Assembly: GCA_019186985.1 (NCBI GenBank)
Contig: JABARQ010000046.1
Coordinates: 1 to 64,000, forward strand
From: Prosthecobacter sp.
GTDB taxonomy: Bacteria > Verrucomicrobiota > Verrucomicrobiia > Verrucomicrobiales > Verrucomicrobiaceae
DNA length: 64,000 nucleotides
Direction: 5' to 3'
The translations under genes and the position numbers were made by a program. Shown here piece after piece: positions 45,994 through 60,265 of the stretch. The notes under the pieces were generated by a model. That model was not told where the DNA came from, did not search any database, and saw only the letters and a program-made list of their open reading frames with translations. Numbering within the stretch: the first letter of the stretch is position 1; every line of letters begins with the position of its first letter.

Positions 45994-46494
45994 ATGATGA
46001 ACCATTCTTCCTGGAAGCAGCGCGCGATTGTCGGCGTCACCATTCTCGTTTCGGCCGCGACTTTGATTTGTGCGCCATGGGGGAATCTCAGAAAATCCAA
46101 AGAACCTTCTGAGAAAAAAGCGGCTCAAGGGATTCCCGTCAGGAGTGTTTCCTCCCCAGCGTCGAGTTCTGCGCAGGTGTCGGATCATGAAGATGAAGAT
46201 CTGATTTCTGAAATGCTTTCGTTGCTTGCGAAGAAGCCGACCAAAGTCATGCCCTTGTTTTGCGGTCAGAAAATTCATCATGTCATGGCTGAGGACATCT
46301 ATGAGGATGAGGTCTCGGGCATGATTGTCGTGACCGGCCTTAGGCGCCTTGAACTGGACGATGGTCGCTGGGTGGAGACATCGACGGATGGAAAGCTAAT
46401 AGTCAATCCTGACTCAGGTCAGATGGAAGTGACAGCAACGTCTTCTTCTTTTTCCATGCCTGATCCACGGCAAAAGAAGGAGCTTTCAGATTGA
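45994..46494 (+). CDS. hypothetical secreted or anchored protein, AT-rich
   Basis: The product is 166 aa. Basic N-terminus and one hydrophobic helix (AIVGVTILVSAATLICAPWG, about 11-30), then Ser-rich linker and an acidic stretch (DHEDEDLISEM). The C-terminal half contains VSGMIVVTGLRRLELDDGRWVETSTDGKL. No family recognised. The gene and its 185-base upstream region are more AT-rich than neighbours, which may mean acquisition. It is convergent with the second kdpE. Starts at 45994 and 45997 are equivalent. Confidence 0.6.
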   Translation: MMNHSSWKQRAIVGVTILVSAATLICAPWGNLRKSKEPSEKKAAQGIPVRSVSSPASSSAQVSDHEDEDLISEMLSLLAKKPTKVMPLFCGQKIHHVMAEDIYEDEVSGMIVVTGLRRLELDDGRWVETSTDGKLIVNPDSGQMEVTATSSSFSMPDPRQKKELSD

Positions 46495-46559
46495 TGCGCT
46501 GACAGGACCGGCCCGCGTCCCGCCGACCCCGACCTGAACGGGTGGCTGCGCAGGAGCCC

Positions 46560-47222
46560 TCAGCCCTCCAGCCGGTAGCCGATGCCGGGTTCGTTGAGGA
46601 TGCGCAGGCCGCGGTCGCCGAGCTTTTTGCGGAGGTGGTTGATGTGGACGCGCAGGCCTTCGCCAGGGTCGCTCACCTGCCCGGGCCAGACCTGCCGGAT
46701 GATCTGGTTCTGGGTGACGATGCGCCCGGCATGCGCGGCCAGGGCCTTGAGCAGCTCAAACTCCGTCGGGGTGAGCTTCAAGGCTTCATCGGCGATCCGT
46801 GCCTCGTGATGCAGCAGGTCGAGCCTGAGCGGGCCGGCGGTGATCTCCGGCGTGTGCCGGGTGCCCCGGCGGCGCTGGATGACCTCAAGGCGCGCGAGCA
46901 GCTCGGCCGAACCAAAAGGTTTGGTGACATAGTCGTCGGCGCCGCCCTCCAGGGCCTGGACCTTCACGGCCTCCTGGTCGCGCACGCTGAGGATGAGCAC
47001 GGGCGCGTCGCTCCATTCACGCAGGCGCTTCAGCACCTCAAGCCCGCCGATTCCGGGCAGGCCGAGGTCGAGCAGGATGACGTCGGGCCGGTGAAAGGCG
47101 GCCTCCTGAAGGCCGCGCTGTCCTTCATCGGCCTCGCAGACCTCATAGCCTCGGGACTCCAGCACCATGCGCAGCAGGCGGCGCATCTGCGGCTCGTCAT
47201 CAATGATCAGGGCTTTGCTCAT
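46560..47222 (-). CDS. kdpE: KdpE-like response regulator (second copy)
   Basis: The product is 220 aa. Receiver domain KALIIDDEPQMRRLLRMVLE with phospho-acceptor Asp near residue 52 in PDVILLDLGLPGIGGLEVLK, Thr/Ser and Lys switch residues (ILSVRD, TKPF), then an OmpR-type winged helix (LTPTEFELLKALAAHAGRIV...VRVHINHLRKKL region). Close to KdpE. Start overlaps the stop of the short KdpD-like kinase. A second full kdpE lies 2 kb upstream, so the locus has two pairs. Confidence 0.9.
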   Translation of the reverse strand: MSKALIIDDEPQMRRLLRMVLESRGYEVCEADEGQRGLQEAAFHRPDVILLDLGLPGIGGLEVLKRLREWSDAPVLILSVRDQEAVKVQALEGGADDYVTKPFGSAELLARLEVIQRRRGTRHTPEITAGPLRLDLLHHEARIADEALKLTPTEFELLKALAAHAGRIVTQNQIIRQVWPGQVSDPGEGLRVHINHLRKKLGDRGLRILNEPGIGYRLEG

Positions 47223-48355
47223 GGCTGGCGTGTCTTGACGGGCAGGCTGAGGAGGAACTCCGCGCCGCCCTCGGGATGGTTGCGCACGGTGATGTCACCC
47301 TTCATCGCGCGCATCAGGCCGCGTGAGATGGCGAGCCCAAGGCCGGTGCCGCCTGCGGGGGCGCCGCGGGCGCGGGAAAACTTGTCAAACACGCGGTCCT
47401 CCATCTCCGGCGCCAGGCCGGGGCCGTGGTCGCGGACCCGCAGGTGCAAAAGCAGGTTAGGCCCGTCACCCGGCCCGGCTGAGGGCGGGGTGACATGGAT
47501 TTCGATGTCCGTGCCCGCCGGGGCGTGCTGGGCGGCGTTGTGCAGGATGTTGGCCAGGGCCTGGGCCAGCAGGCGGCTGTCGAGCCGCAGCAGGGGCAGA
47601 TGGTCCGTGCCGGTGACGCGCAACGGGTGGGCGGCAAGCTCGCGCTGAAGAGGGGCTGTGGCGGCATGGAGCACATCGCCGATTTCACACCAGTCGGGCG
47701 CGGGTTTCACGGCGTCGGATTCCACCCGGGTGATTTCGAGGAGGTTCTCGACGATGCGCTGAAGACGGCGTGTTGCGGTGTCGATCTCCGCAGTGAAGGG
47801 GTTGGCGGCGTCGAGGCCGTCGAGGGCGGTGCGGATGATGGTGATGGGCGTCTTGAGCTCGTGGGAGACGCTGTCGAGCAGGGTCCGGTGCAGGCGTTCG
47901 GCCTCGGCGGCGATTTCAGCACGGTGCCTGGCCTGCAGGAGCTGCTCGCGTTCCTGATGATAGTGTTCCAGGGCCGCCTCGCGGGCGCGCAGCCTTGTGA
48001 TGAGGTGGCCCATCGCCATGGCCACGACGAAGAACATGCCGAACATGACCACGTCCTCCGGGCGTTCGATGTGCAGGGTGAAGCGCGGAGGGATGAAGAA
48101 GTAGTTCCAGACCAGCGCCGCCACGGCGGCCATGGCGAGCACGGGCCCGCGGTTCCAGCGCGTGCCGGCGAGGACGATGGCCAGCAGGAAGACCAGCGCG
48201 GAGAACATCGAGCCCGTGAAGGGCAGCAGCCACCAGCAGAGGGAGGCCAGCACGAAGAGGAGGGTCAGCCCCCAGCTGAACTGTCCCACCACATGCACCG
48301 GCACGGGCTGGCGGGGCGGCCTGGGGGCAGGGCCATGACTTGGGGCGGCGTTCAT
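47219..48355 (-). CDS. short KdpD-like sensor histidine kinase lacking the KdpD N-terminal domain
   Basis: The product is 378 aa from the ATG at 48355. It holds the four-helix DUF4118 membrane block of KdpD (LLFVLASLCWWLLPFTGSMF to MFGMFFVVAMAMGHLITRL), HisKA with His165 in DSVSHELKTPITIIRTALDG, and the ATPase boxes LANILHNAAQHAP, VRDHGPGLAP and GGTGLGLAISRG. The cytoplasmic KdpD osmosensor and USP-like domains (about 370 residues) found in the first copy are absent. Sensing must therefore use the membrane block. Coupled to its regulator gene by a four-base overlap. A 17-bp direct-repeat site lies 56 bases upstream. Confidence 0.88.
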   Translation of the reverse strand: MNAAPSHGPAPRPPRQPVPVHVVGQFSWGLTLLFVLASLCWWLLPFTGSMFSALVFLLAIVLAGTRWNRGPVLAMAAVAALVWNYFFIPPRFTLHIERPEDVVMFGMFFVVAMAMGHLITRLRAREAALEHYHQEREQLLQARHRAEIAAEAERLHRTLLDSVSHELKTPITIIRTALDGLDAANPFTAEIDTATRRLQRIVENLLEITRVESDAVKPAPDWCEIGDVLHAATAPLQRELAAHPLRVTGTDHLPLLRLDSRLLAQALANILHNAAQHAPAGTDIEIHVTPPSAGPGDGPNLLLHLRVRDHGPGLAPEMEDRVFDKFSRARGAPAGGTGLGLAISRGLMRAMKGDITVRNHPEGGAEFLLSLPVKTRQP

Positions 48356-48410
48356 GGCGTCATCCTGCGCCTGAAATGCGGCTCCGCCAGTAAACAGGCG
48401 GCGGCGGGGT

Positions 48411-48427
48411 GTTAAGAAGGTGTGAAA
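48411..48427 (-). promoter_or_regulatory. candidate KdpE-type box upstream of the second kdpD-like gene
   Basis: Minus strand TTTCACACCTTCTTAAC: TTCAC and TTAAC spaced 11 bases apart (N6 spacer ACCTTC), as direct repeats bound by OmpR/PhoB-type regulators usually are. Fifteen of 17 bases equal the site upstream of kup, and the distance to the gene start (56 bases) is nearly the same. Confidence 0.55.
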
Positions 48428-48450
48428 CTCAGGGCATGGACCGGGGGGCT

Positions 48451-48834
48451 TCAAGGTCGCCAGCGTGCCTTGGTGAGGCGCACGAGAATGATAAACAGGG
48501 CGATGCAGGCGATGCCAATGGCGTTCTCGTGCAGGGTTGGCGGGAAGATCAGGAAAAAGTCCGCGCCTTTGGCCAGGGCGGAGAAGCTGGAGACGCAGAA
48601 CGGCATCAGGAACAGCCGGAACACCACCCATGGATCCTGCCTGCCCACCGGTGCCGAGCCCTGGGTGCTCAGCAGCAGCGCGACGCCGATGATGGCGCTC
48701 AGTCCCAGCGAGGTGAACCAGAGCCGCAGGCTTGGGTCAAAACGTGCCGCCACCACCAGCATCCACCAGATGAAGTAGCACCACAGGATCATTCGTGCGG
48801 TGCTGAGCGAGGCGAGGTAGCGAAGGACTGGCAT
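48451..48834 (-). CDS. hypothetical multi-pass membrane protein in the kdp locus
   Basis: The product is 127 aa with three to four helices (ILWCYFIWWMLVVAARF, LGLSAIIGVALLLSTQG, ENAIGIACIALFIILVRLTKA). No family recognised. It lies between the first kdpE (93 bases upstream) and the second kdpD-like gene, on the same strand, so it may belong to either unit. A role in potassium or turgor response is inferred from position only. Confidence 0.6.
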   Translation of the reverse strand: MPVLRYLASLSTARMILWCYFIWWMLVVAARFDPSLRLWFTSLGLSAIIGVALLLSTQGSAPVGRQDPWVVFRLFLMPFCVSSFSALAKGADFFLIFPPTLHENAIGIACIALFIILVRLTKARWRP

Positions 48835-48927
48835 GCTTGGAACAATGCGTGAGAAGCGAGGTCCGGACCATGTATTCCTGGAATCTCACGCAGCTGCGGC
48901 CGGCGCTCTGAAAGCCGCTGACGAACT

Positions 48928-49599
48928 TCAGGACTGGCGGCTGTCTTCCAGGCGATAGCCAATTCCTGGTTCGTTTTGAATCTCAAGTCCCGAGCTGCCG
49001 AGCTTCCTGCGCAGATGGTTGGCATAGACGCGCAGGTAGTTGCTCTGCTGCTCGGCCTGCGGACCCCAGACGGCACGCAGGAGCTGCTTGAGAGTGACCA
49101 CCTTTCCGGCATGGCTCACGAGCTGGGCGAGCATGGCGTATTCGGTGGGGGTGAGCTTCAGGGGCAGGCCTGACAGCGCAGCCGCATGATGAACGGGATC
49201 CAGGGTGAGCGGGCCGAGCTGGAGCCTGGCGGCCTCATCGCCCTGATGCCGGCGCTGAATGGCGGCGAGTCGTGCGAGCAGCTCGGCGGTGCTGAAGGGC
49301 TTGGTGACGTAGTCGTCGGCCCCGGCGTCAAAGGCGGCGAGCCTGGAGGCCTCCTGATCGCGAACGCTGAGGATGAGAACGGGGATGCGGCTCCATTCGC
49401 GCAGGCGCTTCAGGGCTTCGACGCCGTCCATGTCCGGCAGGCCGAGGTCGAGCAGGATGACGTCCGGCCTTTCGAAGACGGCGGCCTGCAGGCCGAGCGT
49501 GGCGTTTTCCGCTTCGCGAACGACGTGTCCTTTAGACTCCAGCGCCAGCCGGAGCAGGCGCCGGATCTGGATTTCGTCATCAATGACTAGCACGGTCAT
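48928..49599 (-). CDS. kdpE: KdpE response regulator (first copy)
   Basis: The product is 223 aa. TVLVIDDEIQIRRLLRLALE begins the receiver; phospho-acceptor Asp in PDVILLDLGLPDMDGVEALK; TKPFSTAELLARL follows. OmpR-type winged-helix C-terminus with LTPTEYAMLAQLVSHAGKVV and RVYANHLRRKLGSSGLEIQN. Starts in a four-base overlap with kdpD. Activates the kdp promoter when potassium is scarce. Its DNA-binding half is similar to that of the second copy, so both may recognise the same sites. Confidence 0.93.
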   Translation of the reverse strand: MTVLVIDDEIQIRRLLRLALESKGHVVREAENATLGLQAAVFERPDVILLDLGLPDMDGVEALKRLREWSRIPVLILSVRDQEASRLAAFDAGADDYVTKPFSTAELLARLAAIQRRHQGDEAARLQLGPLTLDPVHHAAALSGLPLKLTPTEYAMLAQLVSHAGKVVTLKQLLRAVWGPQAEQQSNYLRVYANHLRRKLGSSGLEIQNEPGIGYRLEDSRQS

Positions 49600-52280
49600 G
49601 GCTGGGTGCTTTGGAGGTGAGCAGGCGGCGGGTTGTCAGCAAGGGTGAACGCGGAGGTCTGCGGCAGCTCCATCACCAGCTCCGCGCCGCCTTCGGGATG
49701 ATTGCGCGCCGATAGGTCGCCGTTCATCGCCCGGAGGAAGCCGCGTGCAATGGCCAGGCCAAGGCCGGTGCCGCCGGCCGGCGTGCCGGGTGCGCGGTAG
49801 AACTTTTCAAACACCTTCTGCTCCATGCCCGGAGGCAGGCCGGGACCGTGATCCCGCACCATGATTCGCAGGGCACCCTCCCGAAGCACGGCGGTGAGGT
49901 TGATCCCTGCGCCCTCCGGCGTGTGGACGGCGGCATTGTGAAGCAGGTTGGCCAGGGCCTGGGACAGCAGGTGATGGTCGAGCCACACCAGCGGGAAGTC
50001 ATCGTCCATTTGCAGGCTGAAAGGATGCTTTTCCAAGCACGGGCCGGCGGCCTGGCGGGCGGCGCTGATGACGTCATGGAGGTCGCACCAGTCGGGCCTC
50101 GGCTGCAACACCTCGGATTCAAGCCGGGTCATGTGCAGCAGCCCGTCCACCACGCGCTGCAGGCGCTGCACGGCGGTGTTCAGCTCGGTGACGTAGGGGT
50201 TGTGAATGTCTCCCAGCCCTTCGATGGCGGCATGAATGACGGCGATCGGGGTCTTCAGTTCGTGCGACACGCTGTCGAGCAGGGTGCGATGAAGCTTTTC
50301 CGACTCGGCGACGACTTCGGCGAGGCGGATGGCCTGGATGAAATGCTCCTTTTCCAGAACGACCGCGAGCTGCAGGGCGAAGGCCTCGATGGTCTGGCGG
50401 ATGGAGAAGTCAAGGCGGGCCTCCTGGGGCAGCTGCACGCCGAGCACGCCCATCGTGGCGGTGGCGGTCTGCAGGGGGAACCAGGTGGCGGCGGATTCCG
50501 GCAGGGTGTCGGTGAAGCGGCCGGCGCACTGCCGGTTTTCATAGGCCCATGCGGCAACCCCCCATTCCTTGGGGGAAGGCGGGAAGCTGCTGGCCTTGTG
50601 CACCGTCCTGGGCAGCGACCGGTCGTTTTCACGCACGACCAGCGCGGTGCTGGCGTGGAGCAGTTCGTCAATGGTGCGCAGGGCTTCGGCGAGGCCCTTT
50701 GCAGGATTGGCGGCGAGTGCGGCGCTCTGCGTGACGCGAAGCAGGGCGTCCGTCTGGCGCAGCCTGCGGCGTTCGGCGATCTCGCGCAGGCGCAGGCGGC
50801 TGGTCAGGCTTCCCATGCTCAGGGCGACGATGAAGAACATGCCGAACATGATCCAGTCCTCGGCCTTGCTGATGTAGAGCGTGAACTGCGGCGGGATGAA
50901 GAAGAAGTTCCAGCAGAAGGCGCTGAGCGCCGCCATGAGCATGACCGGACCGCGTCGGAAGCGCAGCGCGGCGAGAACGACGGCGAGCAGGAAGACCAGG
51001 GCCACAAACATGTAGCCGGTGATGGAAACGAGGCCCCGGCAGACGCTGGCGATGACGAAGACGGAGACCAGGATCCAGCTGTATTCGCCGATGATGGATT
51101 CGGACAGCGGCTCCTGGAGCGGGGCGGCGCCGCAGGTCACCTCCGGGGCGGCGAGGGGGCGCACCAAGCAGACATCAATGTCGCCGCTGCCCAGGATGAG
51201 CAGGTCGGCGAGCGACTTCCTCCAGGGCGAGGGCCTGTCGGGCTTGCCGACAACCAATTGGGTGACATTGCGCTCCCGGGCGGTTTGAAGCAGCGCCTCG
51301 GCGATGTTGTCACCGGCCACCGGGACGATTTCTCCGCCGAGCCTGCGGGCCAGGCCGAGCGCATGGGTCAGCCGCTCCTGCTCGGCGGCGCTGAGGGCTC
51401 GGGAGCCTTCGACCCAGACGACGAGCCAGGGGCAGTTCAGACGCGTGGCCGCCCGGCGCGTCCAGCGGATGAGGCTTTCGGCATAGGGGCTGGGACCGAT
51501 GCCGACCATGAGCCGGGCGCTGGTCTTCCAGGGGCTGCGCACGCGCTTCAGGCGGCGGATGTCCTCCAGGTCACGGTCCACCTGTTCTGCGGTGAAGCGC
51601 AGGGCAAGCTCGCGCAACGCGGTCAGGTTGCCTTCCTTGAAGAAGTTCGACACGGCGTGTTCCGCGCGTTCGCCAAGGTACACCTTGCCGTCCGCCATGC
51701 GCTCCAGCAGCTTCTCGACGCTGAGGTCGATGAGCTGGATTTCATCGGCGACGTCCAGGACGGAGTCCGGCACGGTCTCGCGGATCGCCACGCCGCTGAT
51801 CTGCTGGACGATGTCCACCTGGCTTTCGATGTGCTGGACGTTGAGCGTCGTGTAAACATCGATGCCCGACTCGATCAGCTCCAGCACGTCCTGGCAGCGC
51901 TTGGCATGCCGCGAGCCCGGGGCGTTGGTGTGTGCCAGCTCGTCCACCAGCACGAGCTGCGGCCTTTGCGCAAGCACGGCGTCAATGTCAAACTCCTCCA
52001 GGGTGAAGCCGCGATGATCGAGCTTCATGCGCGGCAGAACGCGCAAGCCTTCGAGCAGCGAGGCGGTTTCATGCCGTCCGTGTGTCTCGACGACGCCCAC
52101 AAGCACGTCCGCGCCCTCCTGCACGCGCTGCCGCGCCGCCTGGAGCATGGCATAGGTCTTGCCGACGCCCGGGCACATGCCGAGGAAGATGTGAAGCCTG
52201 CCGGTTCTGGACTTCACCTCCTCACGCCGCATCTGCGCCAGAAGGGCGTCGGGATCAGGGCGTGGATCTTCGGCGTTCAT
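49596..52280 (-). CDS. kdpD: KdpD sensor histidine kinase, full length
   Basis: The product is 894 aa, normal for KdpD. N-terminal KdpD domain with Walker A GMCPGVGKTYAML (about 34-46) and VDELAHTNAPGSRHAKR; a USP-like domain (about 245-370); DUF4118 four-helix membrane block (about 395-500); a GAF-like segment (about 525-640); HisKA with His673 in SVSHELKTP; and ATPase boxes VRDHGPGLPP and GGTGLGLAIARG. Inner membrane. Couples low potassium or turgor to KdpE phosphorylation. Start overlaps the kdpC stop. Confidence 0.95.
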   Translation of the reverse strand: MNAEDPRPDPDALLAQMRREEVKSRTGRLHIFLGMCPGVGKTYAMLQAARQRVQEGADVLVGVVETHGRHETASLLEGLRVLPRMKLDHRGFTLEEFDIDAVLAQRPQLVLVDELAHTNAPGSRHAKRCQDVLELIESGIDVYTTLNVQHIESQVDIVQQISGVAIRETVPDSVLDVADEIQLIDLSVEKLLERMADGKVYLGERAEHAVSNFFKEGNLTALRELALRFTAEQVDRDLEDIRRLKRVRSPWKTSARLMVGIGPSPYAESLIRWTRRAATRLNCPWLVVWVEGSRALSAAEQERLTHALGLARRLGGEIVPVAGDNIAEALLQTARERNVTQLVVGKPDRPSPWRKSLADLLILGSGDIDVCLVRPLAAPEVTCGAAPLQEPLSESIIGEYSWILVSVFVIASVCRGLVSITGYMFVALVFLLAVVLAALRFRRGPVMLMAALSAFCWNFFFIPPQFTLYISKAEDWIMFGMFFIVALSMGSLTSRLRLREIAERRRLRQTDALLRVTQSAALAANPAKGLAEALRTIDELLHASTALVVRENDRSLPRTVHKASSFPPSPKEWGVAAWAYENRQCAGRFTDTLPESAATWFPLQTATATMGVLGVQLPQEARLDFSIRQTIEAFALQLAVVLEKEHFIQAIRLAEVVAESEKLHRTLLDSVSHELKTPIAVIHAAIEGLGDIHNPYVTELNTAVQRLQRVVDGLLHMTRLESEVLQPRPDWCDLHDVISAARQAAGPCLEKHPFSLQMDDDFPLVWLDHHLLSQALANLLHNAAVHTPEGAGINLTAVLREGALRIMVRDHGPGLPPGMEQKVFEKFYRAPGTPAGGTGLGLAIARGFLRAMNGDLSARNHPEGGAELVMELPQTSAFTLADNPPPAHLQSTQP

Positions 52281-52876
52281 GGCCTTGAGGCGGGCGCCAG
52301 GGTGTCGAGGCCGAGGTTCAGGGCCAGTACGTTCACGGCCGGCTCCCCAAGAAGGCCAAGGCCGGGGTCTGTGGTGTGCGTGGAGATCAGCGCCTTCACC
52401 CTTTCAAGGCCGAGCCCCCTGGCCCTGGCGACGCGTGCGGCCTGAAGCAGGGCGTTGCTGACGCTGATGTGCGGGTCGAGGCCGCTGCCGGAGGCGGTGA
52501 CGGCGTCGGCCGGAACTTCGGCATCGTTAGTTAGGCCGTTGAGCCTGCGGTAGGCGGCGACACGCTCCTTCAGGGCGTCATGGAGCTTTTGCGAGGTGGG
52601 GCCGAGGTTGCTGCCGCCTGAGCCGGCGGCGTCGTGACCGCCTCCGGCGGCGCTGGGGCGCGGGTGGAAGAAGTTTTCGGCCGCGAAGTTCTGGCTGAGC
52701 AGCGCGGAGCCGCGTACGGCGCCGTCCTTGTCGATGATGAGGCTGCCACCAGCCTTGTCTTTGAAGACCTTTTGGGCAACGCCCGTGACGAGCAGCGGGT
52801 AGGCGCCGCAGGTGACGACGGCGAGCACAAGCGTGGCGCGGAGCGAGGGGAGAAGTTCGGAAACGAGGGCTTGCAT
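52277..52876 (-). CDS. kdpC: K+-transporting ATPase subunit KdpC
   Basis: The product is 199 aa. One N-terminal helix (LRATLVLAVVTCGAYPLLVTGVA), then KdpC hallmarks: GSALLSQNFAAENFFHPRPSA, SGGSNLGPTS, and the VTASGSGLDPHISVSNA motif. Inner-membrane catalytic chaperone of the KdpFABC pump. Lies three bases after kdpB and overlaps kdpD by four, completing the canonical operon order. Confidence 0.96.
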   Translation of the reverse strand: MQALVSELLPSLRATLVLAVVTCGAYPLLVTGVAQKVFKDKAGGSLIIDKDGAVRGSALLSQNFAAENFFHPRPSAAGGGHDAAGSGGSNLGPTSQKLHDALKERVAAYRRLNGLTNDAEVPADAVTASGSGLDPHISVSNALLQAARVARARGLGLERVKALISTHTTDPGLGLLGEPAVNVLALNLGLDTLAPASRP

Positions 52877-52879
52877 GGT

Positions 52880-54901
<2,022 letters not shown>

Positions 54902-54920
54902 GGTCGCAGAAAAGAAAGGT

Positions 54921-56633
54921 TTAAAACAGCCTGCCCTGGCCCATCAGGAAGTGCTCGACGATGGGGCCGAGGGCGAGGGCGGGGAGGAAATTGAGCGCGC
55001 CGATGAGCAGCACGGTGCCGATGAGCAGGACCGTGAAGGTCGCGCCATTGACCGGGAAGGTGCCCGCGCTCGGCGGCACGGTTTGCTTGCCAGCGAGCGA
55101 TCCGGCGAGCGCCATGATCGGCACGATCATGAGGAAGCGGCCGATGAGCATGGCGAGGCCGAGGGTGGTGTTATACCAGGGTGTGTTCGCGGTGAGGCCG
55201 GCGAAGGCACTGCCATTGTTGCCGGTGGCGGAGCTGTAGGCATAGAGCATCTCGCTGAACCCGTGCGGGCCGCTGTTGTTCAGGCCGGCGACGCCCCAGC
55301 CGCTCACGCAGGCCCAGGCGGTGAAGCCGAGGATGCTCAATGTGAGAACGAGCAGCGTGAGCATGGCCAGCTTCACCTCCTTGGCCTGGATCTTCTTGCC
55401 CAGATACTCCGGCGTGCGGCCGACCATGAGGCCGGCGATGAACACGGCAAGCACGACAAAGACGAGCATGCCATACAGGCCCGCGCCGACACCGCCGATG
55501 ACGACTTCGCCCAGCTCCATCATGAACAACGGCACCAGACCGCCGAGGGGCGTGAAGGAGTCGTGCATGGAGTTCACCGCGCCGCAGGACGCGGCGGTGG
55601 TGATGGTGGCGAAGAGGGAGGAGTTGAAGATGCCGAAGCGGACCTCCTTGCCCTCCAGGTTGCCATCGGCGGCGGCGATGCCGAGCTGTTGATGGATCGG
55701 ATTGCCGACGGCCTCGTAGTGAGCACACACGAGCACGCTGCCGAGAAAGAGCGCCACCATCGCGGCCCACACGGCCCAGCCGTGCGCCTGGTTCTTCACC
55801 ATGCGGCCAAGATAATAGGTGAGTCCGCTGCCGATGCTGAAAATGGAGAGCATCTGGATGAAGTTCGACAGGGGGGTCGGGTTCTCGAAGGGGTGGGCGG
55901 CGTTTGTGTTCATGAAGCCGCCGCCGTTGGTGCCGAGCATCTTGATCGCCACCTGCGAGGCCATGGGGCCCTGGGCGATCACCTGCTCCGCCCCTTCGAG
56001 CGTCTTCACCTGGGTGTAGGGATCAAAGTTTTGGATCATGCCCTGCGACACGAGAAAGAGTGCAAACACGACGCAGATCGGAAGCAGCAGGTAATAAGTG
56101 GCGCGGACGAGGTCAGCCCAGAAATTGCCGAGCGTCTTCGCTGAGCTGCGGGCGATGCCGCGCACGAGCGCCGCAGCGATGCCGATGCCAACAGCAGCAG
56201 AGACGAAGTTGTGGAACGTCAGTCCTACCATCTGCGAGAAGTAACTCATGGCGGCCTCGCCGCCGTAGCTCTGCCAGTTGGTGTTCGTGGTGAAGCTCAC
56301 CGCCGTGTTGAAGGCCAGATGATGGCTCAGGCCGGGCAGGGTCTGTGGATTCCATGGCAGGAGATGCTGCAGGCGCAGGATGGCATAGGTGAACACCACG
56401 CCGACAAGGCTGAAGGCCAGCATGGCAAAGGTGTATTGCTTCCACCCGTGTTCGCGCTGCGGATCGACGCCGAGCAGCCTGTAGGTGAGCTTTTCGACCG
56501 GCTTGACCACCGGATCGAGCCAGGTGCGGCCGTTGGTGTCGAGCACCTGCATGAGGTAGAGGCCCATCGGCTTCGTGATGAGCGTGAGGATGCCCAGGTA
56601 GAGGGCGAACTGAAGCCAGTCGGTCGCGTGCAT
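54921..56633 (-). CDS. kdpA: K+-transporting ATPase subunit KdpA
   Basis: The product is 570 aa with about ten helices. Selectivity-filter loops of the four pseudo-repeats can be seen ([71 protein letters not shown]). It forms the potassium channel-like pore of the pump. Ten bases follow the kdpF stop before its start. Confidence 0.97.
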
Positions 56634-56643
56634 GGTGGTGGGA

Positions 56644-56727
56644 TTAGAACTTTTCCGGACGCAGCATCGCCACGATCAGGTAGGCGAGCAGGGCGAGGGC
56701 GATGAGCCCGACGAGAAGGGTTTCCAT
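56644..56727 (-). CDS. kdpF: K+-transporting ATPase subunit KdpF
   Basis: A 27-residue single-helix peptide with LLVGLIALALLAYLIVAMLR then PEKF, the typical KdpF ending (Y-L-x-x-A-x-L-x-P-E-x-F). It stabilises the KdpABC complex. Position immediately upstream of kdpA is canonical. Found by reading the gap directly because it is short. Confidence 0.9.
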   Translation of the reverse strand: METLLVGLIALALLAYLIVAMLRPEKF

Positions 56728-56739
56728 GGCGCGGGGCGG

Positions 56740-56850
56740 CTAGAGGGTTTCGCAGCCGCCTGCGTAGGCGGCGCAGATGACGAAGAAGACCACCAGGGTG
56801 GTGAGGAAGACGAGGTCGATCATGACGCCGCCATCCTCATGGAGGTTCAT
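56740..56850 (-). CDS. 36-residue membrane peptide at the head of the kdp operon
   Basis: Frame from the ATG at 56850 to the TAG at 56740, 12 bases before kdpF. Product has one helix (IDLVFLTTLVVFFVICAAYA, 11-30) ending GGCETL. Small one-helix ORFs ending in C-[ED]-x-L occur beside kdpF in other bacteria as far as I recall, so this is probably a real leader gene or accessory subunit. An internal ATG (56823) would give a 27-residue form, the same length as KdpF. Confidence 0.65.
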   Translation of the reverse strand: MNLHEDGGVMIDLVFLTTLVVFFVICAAYAGGCETL

Positions 56851-56867
56851 GAGAAGCGTGAGTTAAA

Positions 56868-56885
56868 GGCGCCCCTGTGGGCGTC
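56868..56885 (-). terminator. weak hairpin between kup and the kdp operon
   Basis: Minus strand GACGCCC, loop ACAG, GGGCGCC (7-bp stem with one G-T pair), then TTTAA. It could end the kup transcript or lie in the kdp leader. It overlaps the right edge of the direct-repeat site at 56883-56899 by three bases, so regulator binding and hairpin are adjacent. Confidence 0.35.
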
Positions 56886-56899
56886 AAAAAAGCGTTAAC
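56883..56899 (-). promoter_or_regulatory. candidate KdpE-type box upstream of the kdp operon
   Basis: Minus strand GTTAACGCTTTTTTGAC: TTAAC and TTGAC spaced 11 bases apart, the same arrangement as the sites before kup and before the second kdpD-like gene. It ends 33 bases before the start of the 36-residue ORF. The T-run spacer resembles the T-rich KdpE site known from E. coli. Confidence 0.55.
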
Positions 56900-56908
56900 A
56901 AACGCGGC

Positions 56909-58852
56909 CTAGATCTCCACCTGCTGGCCGAGCTCAATGACGCGGCCGACGGGGATCTGGAAGTAGGTGGCGGGCTGCTGGGCGAGCTTGCTGGCGAGCG
57001 AGAAGAGGTGCTTGCGCCAGCGTGCCATGCCCGGGGCTGGGTTTGGCACGATGATCTCACGGCCGAGGAAGAAGGTGGCCTTGTCGGGGTCGACCTCGAG
57101 GCCGTGCCCCGCGCACTGGCGCAGCAGGCGGGGCACGTTGGGTTTCTGCATGAAGCCGAAGCGGCCGGTGACGCGCCAGAAGTTGTCGCCGAGCTTCTCG
57201 ACCTCGACCCGCCGTCCCGGCGGCACCCAGGGTTCGTCCTCGGTGGTCAGCGTCATGAAGATGACGCGCTGATGAATGGCCTGGTAATGCTTCAGGCTGT
57301 GCAGGAGCGCGACGGGTGCGCGGCCCTGGGTGCTGGTCATGAAGACGGCGGTGCCCGGAACCTGCACCACCCTGCCGCGGGCGAGGCTTTCAATGAGCGT
57401 CTCCTGCGAGAGGGCGCTGCGTTCCATGGAGGCGCGCACCATCCTGCGTCCCGTGGCCCAGGTGGTCATCACCAGGAAGATCATCGCACCGACGGCGAGC
57501 GGGAACCAGCCGCCGTCGAAGAACTTCACCAGGTTGGCGCTGAGGAAGGCGGCTTCGATGAGTCCGAACACCAGGCAGAGCGGCACGACCTTGAGCAGGG
57601 ACCATTGCCACAGGTGCCGGGCGGCGAAGTAAAACAGCACGGTGGTGATGAGCATCGTCATCGTCACGGCCACGCCGTAGGCGGCGGCGAGGTTGGACGA
57701 GGTGCGGAAGGCGATGACCAGGGTCAGGCAGGCGAGCATGAGCAGCCAGTTCACCAGCGGGATGTAGATCTGGCCGCGGGCGTGTTCGGAGGTGTGGCGG
57801 ATGTTCAGACGCGGCAGGTAGCCGAGCTGAACGGCGCTGAGCGTTAGGGAGTAGGTGCCGGTGATGAGGGCCTGGGAGGCGATGACGGTGGCGGCCGTGG
57901 CGAGCAGCACAAGCGGCAGCGCGGCCCAGGACGGGGCCATCTGGAAGAACGGCGCGTGCGCCAGCTCCGGACGATGCAGCAGCAGGGCGCCCTGGCCGAG
58001 GTAGTTCAGCCCCAGCGCGGGGAAGACGAGCATGAACCAGCCGCGGCGGATCGGCCCGGCGCCGAAGTGTCCCATGTCGGCATAGAGCGCCTCGCCGCCG
58101 GTCACGGCCAGGAAGACGCTGCCGAGGATGACAAAGGCGGCATGGCCTCCGGTGGTCAGGAAATGCCAGCCATGCCAGGGGTTGAAGGCGGCCAGGATTT
58201 CCGGCCCGTTCACCAGCTGTGACAGGCCGAGCAGGCCGAGGCTGACAAACCAAAGGCCTGTCACCGGGCCAAAGAAACGCCCGACGCGGGCGGTGCCGAG
58301 AAACTGCACGGCGAACAGCGCCACCAGGATGACCAGCGTGATGCCGATGATGAGCCATTGCATGCGATGCTCCCAGGCGGCGGCCAGGACCAGGTCGGCC
58401 GGAGGCGCGCCGAGCAGGCCGCCGTCCTTCAAACCCTCCACCGCGCTGAGCACGGAGATGGCTGGCGTGATGATGCCGTCGCCGAACAAAAGCGAGGCTC
58501 CAAACAAGCCCAGCAGCACCGTCACCACGCGACGCTTCATCGTTTCACCCATGCCATGCGTGGCGAGAGCCATGAGCGAGAGCACGCCGCCTTCGCCCTT
58601 GTTGTCGGCGCGCAGGATGAAGACGAGGTATTTGACGCAGATGAGGAGAATGAGCGACCAGAGCACCAGTGAGACCACGCCAAGGATGTGCGCGTGGCTG
58701 GCGGCGACATGATGGGGGCTGTGCGGGCTGAAGCACTCCTTGAGCGTGTAAATCGGGCTGGTGCCGATGTCTCCGAAGACGACGCCAAGAGCCGCGATGA
58801 CGAGGGTGGTGCCGGAGAGCTTGTGGAGGCCGTGACGATCAGGGTCTTTCAT
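56909..58852 (-). CDS. kup: Kup-family potassium uptake transporter
   Basis: The product is 647 aa from the ATG at 58852 (an in-frame start at 58906 lacks family similarity). Family hallmarks: GVVFGDIGTSPIYTLKECF near the N-terminus, LRADNKGEGGVLSLMALA, FGDGIITPAISVLSAVEGL, ADMGHFGAGPIRRGW and a C-terminal cytoplasmic domain. Twelve helices expected. Proton-coupled potassium uptake with modest affinity. It is next to kdp and both have the same candidate operator, so the two systems are likely co-regulated. Confidence 0.95.
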   Translation of the reverse strand: MKDPDRHGLHKLSGTTLVIAALGVVFGDIGTSPIYTLKECFSPHSPHHVAASHAHILGVVSLVLWSLILLICVKYLVFILRADNKGEGGVLSLMALATHGMGETMKRRVVTVLLGLFGASLLFGDGIITPAISVLSAVEGLKDGGLLGAPPADLVLAAAWEHRMQWLIIGITLVILVALFAVQFLGTARVGRFFGPVTGLWFVSLGLLGLSQLVNGPEILAAFNPWHGWHFLTTGGHAAFVILGSVFLAVTGGEALYADMGHFGAGPIRRGWFMLVFPALGLNYLGQGALLLHRPELAHAPFFQMAPSWAALPLVLLATAATVIASQALITGTYSLTLSAVQLGYLPRLNIRHTSEHARGQIYIPLVNWLLMLACLTLVIAFRTSSNLAAAYGVAVTMTMLITTVLFYFAARHLWQWSLLKVVPLCLVFGLIEAAFLSANLVKFFDGGWFPLAVGAMIFLVMTTWATGRRMVRASMERSALSQETLIESLARGRVVQVPGTAVFMTSTQGRAPVALLHSLKHYQAIHQRVIFMTLTTEDEPWVPPGRRVEVEKLGDNFWRVTGRFGFMQKPNVPRLLRQCAGHGLEVDPDKATFFLGREIIVPNPAPGMARWRKHLFSLASKLAQQPATYFQIPVGRVIELGQQVEI

Positions 58853-58909
58853 GACGCCCCAGGCTCCCCCGCCTGTCCAGAGCCGCCAGTGAAGGCGGGC
58901 AGGCACCGA

Positions 58910-58926
58910 GTTAAGAAGGTGTTAAC
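58910..58926 (-). promoter_or_regulatory. candidate KdpE-type box upstream of kup
   Basis: Minus strand GTTAACACCTTCTTAAC: two TTAAC half-sites spaced 11 bases apart, 58 bases upstream of the kup ATG and also 67 bases before the divergent ThuA-like gene. Compare the sites at 48411-48427 and 56883-56899. Confidence 0.6.
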
Positions 58927-58992
58927 GGCAGATCCGGACACCGGACCTTTCATCTGCGGAAGGAACCTGGTCATCCTGTTCGTTATGCGCGG

Positions 58993-59910
58993 ATGTTCCT
59001 TGTCCGATCCGCCATCCTCTGCCTGGCCGCCTCCGGCCTTTTGCACGCCGAACTGACGCCTGAACAGCAGCAGGTGCCGCTGGAGCGGCTGCCTTCCGAC
59101 CCCTCGAAGGCAAGGATCGTTCTGATCGCCGGCAGCACCAGCAACAAGCCCGGCCAGCATGAGTACTTCGCCGGCTGCGCCCTGATCATGGACTGGCTGA
59201 AGAAGGTGCCCGGCGTGGCACCTGTGCTTGTCGCCGAGGGCTGGCCGAAGAATCAAGCCGTGCTCGAAGGGGCGAAATCCGTCCTGCTGTTCCTCGACGG
59301 CGGCCCCAAGCTGTCGTTTCTGGAGCCCGCCCGCTGGGCCAGGATGCAGGCGCTGGCGGATGCCGGCACCGGCTTTGTCGTGCTGCACCAGGGCATCGAC
59401 TGCCCGGCTGACCGTGCCGCCGCCTTCAAGCAGTGGTTTGGCGCGGCTTTCCAGCCTGACATCGGCTGCCGCGGCCACTGGGACGTGAAGTTTGAAGCCG
59501 TGCCTGCTCATCCCGTCACCCGTGGCATCCGCCCCTTCGAGCTGCTCAAGGATGGCTGGCTCTACAACCTGCATTTCGCCGCACAAGGTGTTACGCCGGT
59601 CCTGGCCGGCGCCATGCCGGACAGCAGCCGGAAGACGGCGGACGCCAAGGCTCATGCGGGACGTGCGGAAACCGTGGCCTGGACTTATGAGCGTCCGAAC
59701 GGCGGCCGCAGCTTTGGCTTCACCGGCTGTGACCTGCATGCCAACTGGGCGGACGCCAACCAGCGCCTGCTGGTGCTCAACGGCCTGCTCTGGACCGCCG
59801 GGGTTGAAGTTCCTGAAGGCGGGCTGGTTTCGGAGGTGAGCGAGGCTGACCTGAAGAAAAACTGGGACCGCAAGGTCTTCCTCAAGAAGGACAAGGCGAA
59901 GACGAAGTGA
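58993..59910 (+). CDS. secreted ThuA-like domain protein
   Basis: The product is 305 aa with a signal peptide (MFLVRSAILCLAASGLLHAE). ThuA-like features: ARIVLIAGSTSNKPGQHEYF, SVLLFLDGG, ADAGTGFVVLHQGIDCPADR, and a closing RSFGFTGCDLHANWADANQRLLVLNGLLWTAG. The C-terminus is Lys-rich. Distinct from the first ThuA protein (no Lys/Glu insert). Divergent from kup. Catalysis of ThuA domains remains unproven; a sugar-related role is likely in this phylum. Confidence 0.8.
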   Translation: MFLVRSAILCLAASGLLHAELTPEQQQVPLERLPSDPSKARIVLIAGSTSNKPGQHEYFAGCALIMDWLKKVPGVAPVLVAEGWPKNQAVLEGAKSVLLFLDGGPKLSFLEPARWARMQALADAGTGFVVLHQGIDCPADRAAAFKQWFGAAFQPDIGCRGHWDVKFEAVPAHPVTRGIRPFELLKDGWLYNLHFAAQGVTPVLAGAMPDSSRKTADAKAHAGRAETVAWTYERPNGGRSFGFTGCDLHANWADANQRLLVLNGLLWTAGVEVPEGGLVSEVSEADLKKNWDRKVFLKKDKAKTK

Positions 59911-59977
59911 GCGGCGGAAGGTCCGGAGCGCAGCCGACGGTTGCATCCCGTCGTAATATCGGCTCTGTCCGCCTTCC

Positions 59978-60265
59978 ATGGTCAATGTCATCGTCATCCT
60001 CGAAGTCGATCCCGCCCGGGTCGATGAATTCCTGCAGGTCATCACCCACAACGCCGCCGAGTCCGTGAAGGAGCCCGGCTGCACCCGCTTCGAGGTCAAT
60101 CGTCAGGCCGACCAGCCGAATCTTTTCGCCCTGAGCGAGCAGTATGTCGACGCGGCCGCCCTGGAGGCGCACACGAAAACGCCGCACTTTGCGCTCTGGA
60201 AGGAAAAGTCGGCGACCGGCTTTGTCATCAAACGCTGGGCGGTGAAGGGCCCGGTGCTGGAGTAA
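59978..60265 (+). CDS. ABM-domain monooxygenase-like protein (YgiN type)
   Basis: The product is 95 aa, one ferredoxin-like domain: VNVIVILEVDPARVDEFLQVI, EPGCTRFEVNRQADQPNLFAL, EQYVDAAALEAHTKTPHF. Matches the antibiotic biosynthesis monooxygenase fold (putative quinol monooxygenase). Seven bases separate it from moaA, so both may be co-expressed; no functional link is known. Confidence 0.85.
   Translation: MVNVIVILEVDPARVDEFLQVITHNAAESVKEPGCTRFEVNRQADQPNLFALSEQYVDAAALEAHTKTPHFALWKEKSATGFVIKRWAVKGPVLE

What the first reader, a model, noticed from the sequence alone, without database searches (positions are those of the whole stretch)
48411..58926. Three matching direct-repeat sites define a potassium regulon
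TTAAC-N6-TTAAC before kup, TTAAC-N6-TTGAC before the kdp operon and TTCAC-N6-TTAAC before the second kdpD-like gene share an 11-base spacing, as OmpR/PhoB-family sites do. Two share 15 of 17 bases and lie 56-58 bases from their genes. They predict joint control of both potassium uptake systems and of the second sensor pair.
Basis: partly seen in the sequence, partly recalled or inferred. Interest (0 to 1): 0.65.

Follow-up and report, generated by a model that had tools for sequence, protein, structure and literature searches.

The report
Two linked potassium-uptake gene switches
Three matching DNA switch sites next to potassium-uptake genes are real and conserved in relatives, and they seem to belong to two related but separate control circuits, one for each potassium pump, rather than to one shared circuit.

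Summary
Each 11-bp repeat (S1-S2) is followed exactly 21 bp after S2 by a third repeat (S3, TTHACT) and, 21-22 nt after S3, by a -10-like NAnnnT. This layout lies before kup in 35 of 37 family genomes with this kup, before kdp in 30 of 32 scored family loci, and in kdp promoters across the phylum. A matrix trained on kdp promoters from outside the family puts the three window sites first; none of 758,594 positions in a 380-kb background sample scores as high.

S1-S2 matches the footprinted E. coli KdpE box, so KdpE-type control is likely. A single joint regulon is less likely. The kup and hk2 sites form one class, the kdp site another. The kup site persists in 20 genomes where no kdpA was found. 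It is missing only in two genomes that lack the second sensor-regulator pair but keep KdpDE. The regulators differ in the recognition helix (YLRVY versus GLRVH).

Best reading: KdpE drives kdp; a KdpE-derived regulator (RR2, with a short KdpD-like kinase) drives kup and its own operon. No binding was measured.

The parts
58921..58925 (-). kup promoter, half-site S1 TTAAC
   Evidence: three-part site in 35 of 37 class-I kup promoters
58910..58914 (-). kup promoter, half-site S2 TTAAC (11 bp after S1; base before it is C)
58888..58893 (-). kup promoter, third repeat S3 TTCACT (21 bp after S2)
   Evidence: mean 1.93 bits per column in 35 kup promoters that were chosen for the motif
58861..58866 (-). 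kup promoter, -10-like GAGCCT (NAnnnT), 21 nt after S3
   Evidence: NAnnnT at this spacing in 29 of 35 kup promoters
56909..58852 (-). kup (class I, 647 aa)
   Evidence: Pfam K_trans and K_trans_C
56894..56898 (-). kdp promoter, half-site S1 TTAAC
56883..56887 (-). kdp promoter, half-site S2 TTGAC (base before it is T)
56861..56866 (-). kdp promoter, third repeat S3 TTAACT
56833..56838 (-). kdp promoter, -10-like GAGGAT, 22 nt after S3
   Evidence: NAnnnT at 21 or 22 nt in 29 of 30 family kdp promoters
56740..56823 (-). conserved 27-aa small ORF (MIDLVFLTTLVVFFVICAAYAGGCETL), first ORF of the kdp operon
   Evidence: no NCBIfam match
56644..56727 (-). kdpF
   Evidence: TIGR02115 above cut-off; offset
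54921..56633 (-). kdpA
   Evidence: Pfam KdpA
52880..54901 (-). kdpB
   Evidence: ORF and position between kdpA and kdpC; not scanned against families
52277..52876 (-). kdpC
   Evidence: Pfam KdpC
49596..52280 (-). kdpD, full length (PF02702, DUF4118, HisKA, HATPase)
48928..49599 (-). kdpE, recognition helix NYLRVYANHLRRKL
48422..48426 (-). HK2 promoter, half-site S1 TTCAC
48411..48415 (-). HK2 promoter, half-site S2 TTAAC (base before it is C)
48389..48394 (-). HK2 promoter, third repeat S3 TTTACT
48362..48367 (-). HK2 promoter, -10-like CAGGAT, 21 nt after S3
   Evidence: NAnnnT at this spacing in 12 of 12 HK2 promoters long enough to score, of 20 in the set
47219..48355 (-). HK2: short KdpD-like kinase (DUF4118, HisKA, HATPase; no PF02702)
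46560..47222 (-). RR2: KdpE paralogue, 60% identical to KdpE, recognition helix EGLRVHINHLRKKL

Best explanation
The three sites are operators of KdpE-type response regulators in activator-dependent promoters with one fixed layout: S1 at about -71, S2 at -60, S3 at -39, no recognisable -35 box, a weak NAnnnT -10, and a start codon only 6-9 nt after the -10 (near-leaderless mRNA). Two paralogous circuits use this layout. KdpD/KdpE (helix YLRVY) activates the kdp operon. HK2/RR2, a KdpD-like kinase without the N-terminal KdpD module and a KdpE-derived regulator (helix GLRVH), activates kup and its own operon. Shown by sequence: the layout, its conservation, the two site classes and the joint absence of RR2 and the kup site. 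Inferred: that these proteins bind, that they activate, that S3 is a third half-site, the transcription starts, and that low potassium is the signal.
For: Kup sites in 35 of 37 class-I kup genomes at a nearly fixed distance from ATG; opposite-strand control 0 of 37. HK2 has its own three-part site in 21 of 34 genomes (20 of 33 scored by script, plus G002 read); the 13 without it have HK2 9-195 bp behind kup on the same strand. Exact TTYACAYNTTYTTAAC in 68 genomes: 47 hits, 45 of them before kup or HK2; reversed control 0. The matrix from 23 kdp sites outside the family scores kdp 39, hk2 30, kup 28, background maximum 20. Kup matrix: hk2 46, kup 40, kdp 22; kdp matrix: kdp 43, hk2 29, kup 19. 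The kup site is kept in all 20 class-I kup genomes without a kdpA match; there the only KdpE-like match at E<=1e-60 is RR2 (19 of 20; none in G057, 52% complete). The site is absent in G048 and G059, which have no HK2 or RR2 match but keep kdp and KdpE. E. coli KdpE half-sites TTTATA and TTTACA have the same 11-bp period, footprint -72 to -50.
Against: No binding or expression data. The kdp matrix still scores the kup and hk2 sites far above background (19 and 29 against a maximum of 2.7), so cross-talk is possible. The residue-base covariation rests on few independent changes: 2 independent pairs on well-supported branches, test not significant. Promoters of orthologues are alike partly by descent. 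Several genomes are incomplete, so absences (kdpA, HK2, RR2) are not proof. G057 has the kup site but no HK2 or RR2 was found. The sites used for training were picked with a consensus that came from the window. With up to 2 mismatches the two-part kup-type pattern is not enriched in the own genome (12 hits, reversed control 21).
Confidence: 0.72

Rival explanations
1. One joint regulon: both KdpE and RR2 bind all three sites.
For: All three sites share S1-S2-S3; each class matrix scores the other class well above background; the regulators are 60% identical.
Against: Class-specific bases; the kup site is kept where no KdpDE was found and absent where RR2 is absent while KdpDE remains; different recognition helices.
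Confidence: 0.2
2. S3 is not a regulator half-site but a sigma-factor element, so only S1-S2 is the operator.
For: S3 lies just upstream of the -35 position; E. coli has only a weak TTTGCG at that place; the E. coli footprint ends at -50. The third letter of S2 and S3 does not vary together clearly (414 of 5000 shuffles as high).
Against: The spacer from S3 to the -10 is 21-22 nt, not about 17; S3 has the half-site sequence and lies two helical turns from S2; the third letter of S1 and S3 varies together in kdp promoters (0 of 5000 shuffles as high in all rows, 135 of 5000 outside the family; relatedness not corrected).
Confidence: 0.3
3. Chance or composition: T-rich patches in GC-rich intergenic DNA.
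For: The two-part motif has about as many genome hits as its reversed control.
Against: No background position reaches the three-part sites' scores; the layout recurs at orthologous promoters; 47 hits against 0 for the reversed control in 68 genomes.
Confidence: 0.01
4. Control by a riboswitch (such as c-di-AMP) rather than by a DNA-binding regulator.
For: Described for kdp in Bacillus thuringiensis (start of abstract seen in the listing).
Against: No Rfam family at gathering score in 46000-60000; near-leaderless mRNAs, if right, leave no room.
Confidence: 0.02

Closest known systems
E. coli KdpE box before kdpFABC (PMC3264566; abstract and passages seen)
   Same: Two T-rich 6-bp half-sites with 11-bp period; footprint -72 to -50, the position inferred here for S1-S2
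   Different: No clear S3 in E. coli (weak TTTGCG at that place); kup is not a known KdpE target there (recalled)
M. smegmatis KdpE 22-bp site (PMC5401905; abstract, passages and section 20 seen)
   Same: Its complementary strand reads GGCC-TTGAT-GGTTTC-TTTAC-GG, the same 11-bp repeat; the 18-bp probe that lacked the TTTAC half was not bound
   Different: The authors report no noticeable similarity to other KdpE motifs; as printed the repeat lies on the opposite strand; their model has a SigF-dependent promoter
Deinococcus radiodurans split kdpD with separate short kinase and regulator (PMC5716572; passages seen)
   Same: Short KdpD-like kinase without the N-terminal half, with a KdpE-like regulator
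   Different: There the pair controls kdp itself; here it is a second pair tied to kup
Sinorhizobium fredii KdpDE (PMC9239096; passages seen)
   Same: KdpE activates kdpFABC directly
   Different: KdpE does not bind the kup promoter there; here kup has a KdpE-type operator that tracks a second regulator
PhoB/OmpR pho-box promoters (recalled)
   Same: 11-bp direct repeats, activator makes up for a poor -35
   Different: Different half-site sequence; here the pair lies further up and a third repeat sits at -39

Membership tests
KdpE operator (KdpE box) | Two T-rich half-sites at 11-bp period upstream of kdpFABC | tested here: met
KdpE operator (KdpE box) | Bound by phosphorylated KdpE | not testable with these tools
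   needs EMSA or footprinting
OmpR/PhoB-family response regulators (KdpE, RR2) | Response_reg plus Trans_reg_C domains | tested here: met
KdpE orthologue (NCBIfam NF007820) | Score above the curated cut-off 325 | tested here: not met
   RR2 199.5 and the kdp-operon KdpE 206.9, each still the best family listed; KdpE is therefore named by operon position and similarity, RR2 as its paralogue
KdpD, for HK2 | N-terminal KdpD domain (PF02702) | tested here: not met
   present in KdpD, absent in HK2; NF007793 155.5 against cut-off 1123: HK2 is KdpD-like, not KdpD
Activator-dependent sigma70-type promoter | -10 element at fixed distance, no -35 | tested here: inconclusive
   NAnnnT 21-22 nt after S3; transcription start not mapped
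Potassium-responsive regulon | Induction at low potassium | not testable with these tools
   needs expression data

The most novel reading that the evidence does not exclude
A KdpDE-derived two-component system dedicated to kup, confined so far to the Verrucomicrobiaceae, which became insulated from KdpDE by a paired change of the regulator's recognition helix (positions equivalent to E. coli Y191 and Y195, to G and H) and of one operator base (T to C before S2), both circuits using a three-half-site, -35-less, near-leaderless promoter.
Probability: 0.5. Interest if true: 0.62.

Novelty: new variant of a known kind. Interest (0 to 1): 0.5.

Why it matters
In the passages seen here, KdpE binding to a kup promoter was tested once and found absent (S. 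fredii). A kup-linked, KdpE-derived pair next to the kdp system would be a compact natural case of duplication, rewiring and insulation of two-component regulators, with a concrete residue-to-base prediction. It also suggests that the mycobacterial KdpE site, reported as unlike others, is the same repeat read on the other strand.

Tried and rejected
Chance was rejected. No riboswitch was found. Reading S3 as an ordinary -10 was dropped, because a clearer -10 signature lies 21-22 nt further on. S3 as a standard -35 is disfavoured by that spacing but kept as a rival. Own-genome hits to the kup-type pattern with up to 2 mismatches (12 hits, reversed control 21): two are the HK2 and kup sites; of the other 10, 9 were read and none has S3 (L249 not read). 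The matrix scan covered the window and a 380-kb sample, not the whole genome, so further weaker targets are not excluded.

A one-letter code was tested. In 60 KdpE rows a residue other than Y at the position of E. coli Y195 goes with C before S2 (17 of 18) and Y with T (37 of 42; 3 C, 1 A, 1 G) (one search gives 38 of 43 because it held L019, a copy of a family row). RR2 rows: 26 C, 4 T. Uncorrected one-sided Fisher p is 5e-11, but the residue changes only 6 times on the tree, and 2 independent pairs on supported branches cannot be significant. Fresh phylum rows taken alone: non-Y with C 10 of 10, Y with T 7 of 10; one search shows one more non-Y row (V, with C) that the tree set did not take in. 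The rule is a lead, not a result. The tree kept the helix columns and was a quick one. Controls: six Kup paralogues (46-48% identical) have no site; 5 Kup loci of 4 genomes outside the family (46-52%) have none.

Rows dropped or mended: G004 kdp (L190) was fetched but its kdpA start was not found, so 32 of 33 family kdpA genomes were scored. L019 and L027, first counted as outside the family, are copies of family loci and were removed. G055 HK2 stood twice (L169, L185) and G002 HK2 was not scored there; hence 33 genomes scored, and G002 was read. One HK2 locus at score 14 (L178) is spurious and counts as lacking a site. L341 duplicates L054 and was left out of the tree. 40 of the 55 non-family kdpA genomes were fetched; 3 of the 40 had no kdpA start. 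The 47-locus outside set holds other phyla, most without a site; its two hits at score 14 (L028, L048) look spurious. Literature listings used; one search failed on a slash. One search (E. coli site as query) found no match, so the E. coli promoter was taken by accession.
Full report
What is there. The window lies in a 5.88-Mb genome whose nearest named relatives by KdpA are Verrucomicrobia, several of them labelled Verrucomicrobiaceae. On the minus strand run kup, a 27-aa ORF, kdpF, kdpA, kdpB, kdpC, kdpD, kdpE, a 127-aa ORF without a known family, then a second kinase (HK2) and regulator (RR2) (kdpB by position only). HK2 keeps DUF4118, HisKA and HATPase but lacks the KdpD domain; RR2 is 60% identical to KdpE.

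The sites. The two-part motif occurs 9 times in the genome, its reversed control 10 times. But only these three are followed, 16 nt after S2, by TTHACT; the other 6 hits are not. The layout S1-11-S2-21-S3 recurs before kdp in relatives: 30 of 32 scored family loci match at least 15 of 16 constrained positions. So do 21 of 47 loci ranked next by KdpA similarity, other phyla included, and 27 of 37 in a fresh phylum sample under a slightly looser rule and without a control. Controls for the first sets: opposite strand 0 at that score in all four; shuffles at most 0.3%. Information is concentrated in S1, S2 and S3 (1.6-2.0 bits per column) and in the 6 nt between S1 and S2 (1.0-1.5), against 0.3-0.7 in the 16-nt spacer; the rows had been chosen for the repeats, so only the spacers and the -10 are free of that choice.

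The promoter. NAnnnT lies 21 nt after S3 in 29 of 35 kup promoters and in 12 of 12 HK2 promoters long enough to score. It lies 21 or 22 nt after S3 in 29 of 30 family kdp promoters and in 21 of 21 outside the family. If this is the -10, S1 starts near -71, S2 near -60 and S3 near -39. E. coli KdpE protects -72 to -50. No -35-like element was seen at normal spacing by eye. In the window the start codons follow the -10 by 6-9 nt, so the mRNAs may be near-leaderless, which would explain the constant distance of 56-60 bases. Starts are not mapped.

Who reads which site. Class-I kup (78-100% identical) is in 37 of 68 family genomes, HK2 in 34 and RR2 in the same 34, all within the 37. 35 of 37 kup promoters keep the site; the exceptions are G048 and G059, where no HK2 or RR2 was found but kdp and KdpE are present. 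In G059 the upstream region shows what look by eye like decayed pieces of S1 and S3. Twenty class-I kup genomes have no kdpA match and all keep the site. HK2 has its own site in 21 of 34 genomes; the other 13 have HK2 9-195 bp behind kup on the same strand, where the kup promoter can serve it. One close case, G042 (111-bp gap), has its own, weaker site.

Two classes. With the window's own sites left out of training, the kup matrix scores hk2 46, kup 40, kdp 22; the kdp matrix scores kdp 43, hk2 29, kup 19; the best of 758,594 background positions is below 3 in both. A matrix from 23 kdp sites outside the family gives 39 (kdp), 30 (hk2) and 28 (kup) against a background maximum of 20. The training sites were chosen with a consensus that came from the window, so the ranking is not fully independent; the controls limit that worry. 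Typical bases: kup TTCACACTTTC-TTAAC...TTCACTGG, kdp TTAACGCNTTT-TTGAC...TTAACTCG.

Helix and base. KdpE proteins of the family mostly carry YLRVY, all 30 RR2 rows GLRVH. E. coli Y191, the first Y, is equivalent to a PhoB residue that makes base contacts. Non-Y at the second position goes with C before S2 in 17 of 18 KdpE rows, Y with T in 37 of 42. RR2 forms one clade (support 100), whose neighbour is a set of three KdpE proteins that also have H and C-type sites (support 89). Few independent changes exist, so the correlation is not established after correction for relatedness.

Comparison. The sites belong with the KdpE box by layout and place; binding is untested. The M. smegmatis KdpE site, described as unlike others, reads TTGAT-N6-TTTAC on the other strand. 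S. fredii KdpE does not bind its kup promoter. The listings showed no paper, by title or start of abstract, on a kup-dedicated KdpDE-like pair or on Verrucomicrobia KdpE sites; most subscription journals are not held.

Verdict.

Noticed in passing
56740-56823 (-): A conserved small ORF of about 27 aa (pattern MNDLIYLG..FF...LYxRxCExL) stands between the promoter and kdpF in most of the kdp operons printed; in two relatives it is doubled (L107, L109). No NCBIfam match.
   Followed up: partly
48451-48834 (-): 127-aa probable membrane protein between kdpE and the HK2 promoter; no Pfam or NCBIfam family, and among all loci held its only full matches are the window's own copies.
   Followed up: partly
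PMC5401905: The reported A-rich 22-bp M. smegmatis KdpE site is the same TTRAY-N6-TTNAY repeat on the opposite strand; the shorter 18-bp probe that failed to bind lacks most of one half-site.
   Followed up: partly
L218 8874-8889 (-), E. coli K-12: Downstream of the E. coli KdpE box two TTTGC copies lie 21 and 32 bp after the start of S2 (11 bp apart), possibly a weak second pair of half-sites (read).
   Followed up: no
around S3 in L094, L107, L114, L115: Some kdp promoters have an inverted repeat around S3 (for example CCTGCCTTTAACTCGGCAGG); similar ones flank S3 in the window kup and HK2 promoters but not kdp. Read by eye, not counted; meaning unknown.
   Followed up: no
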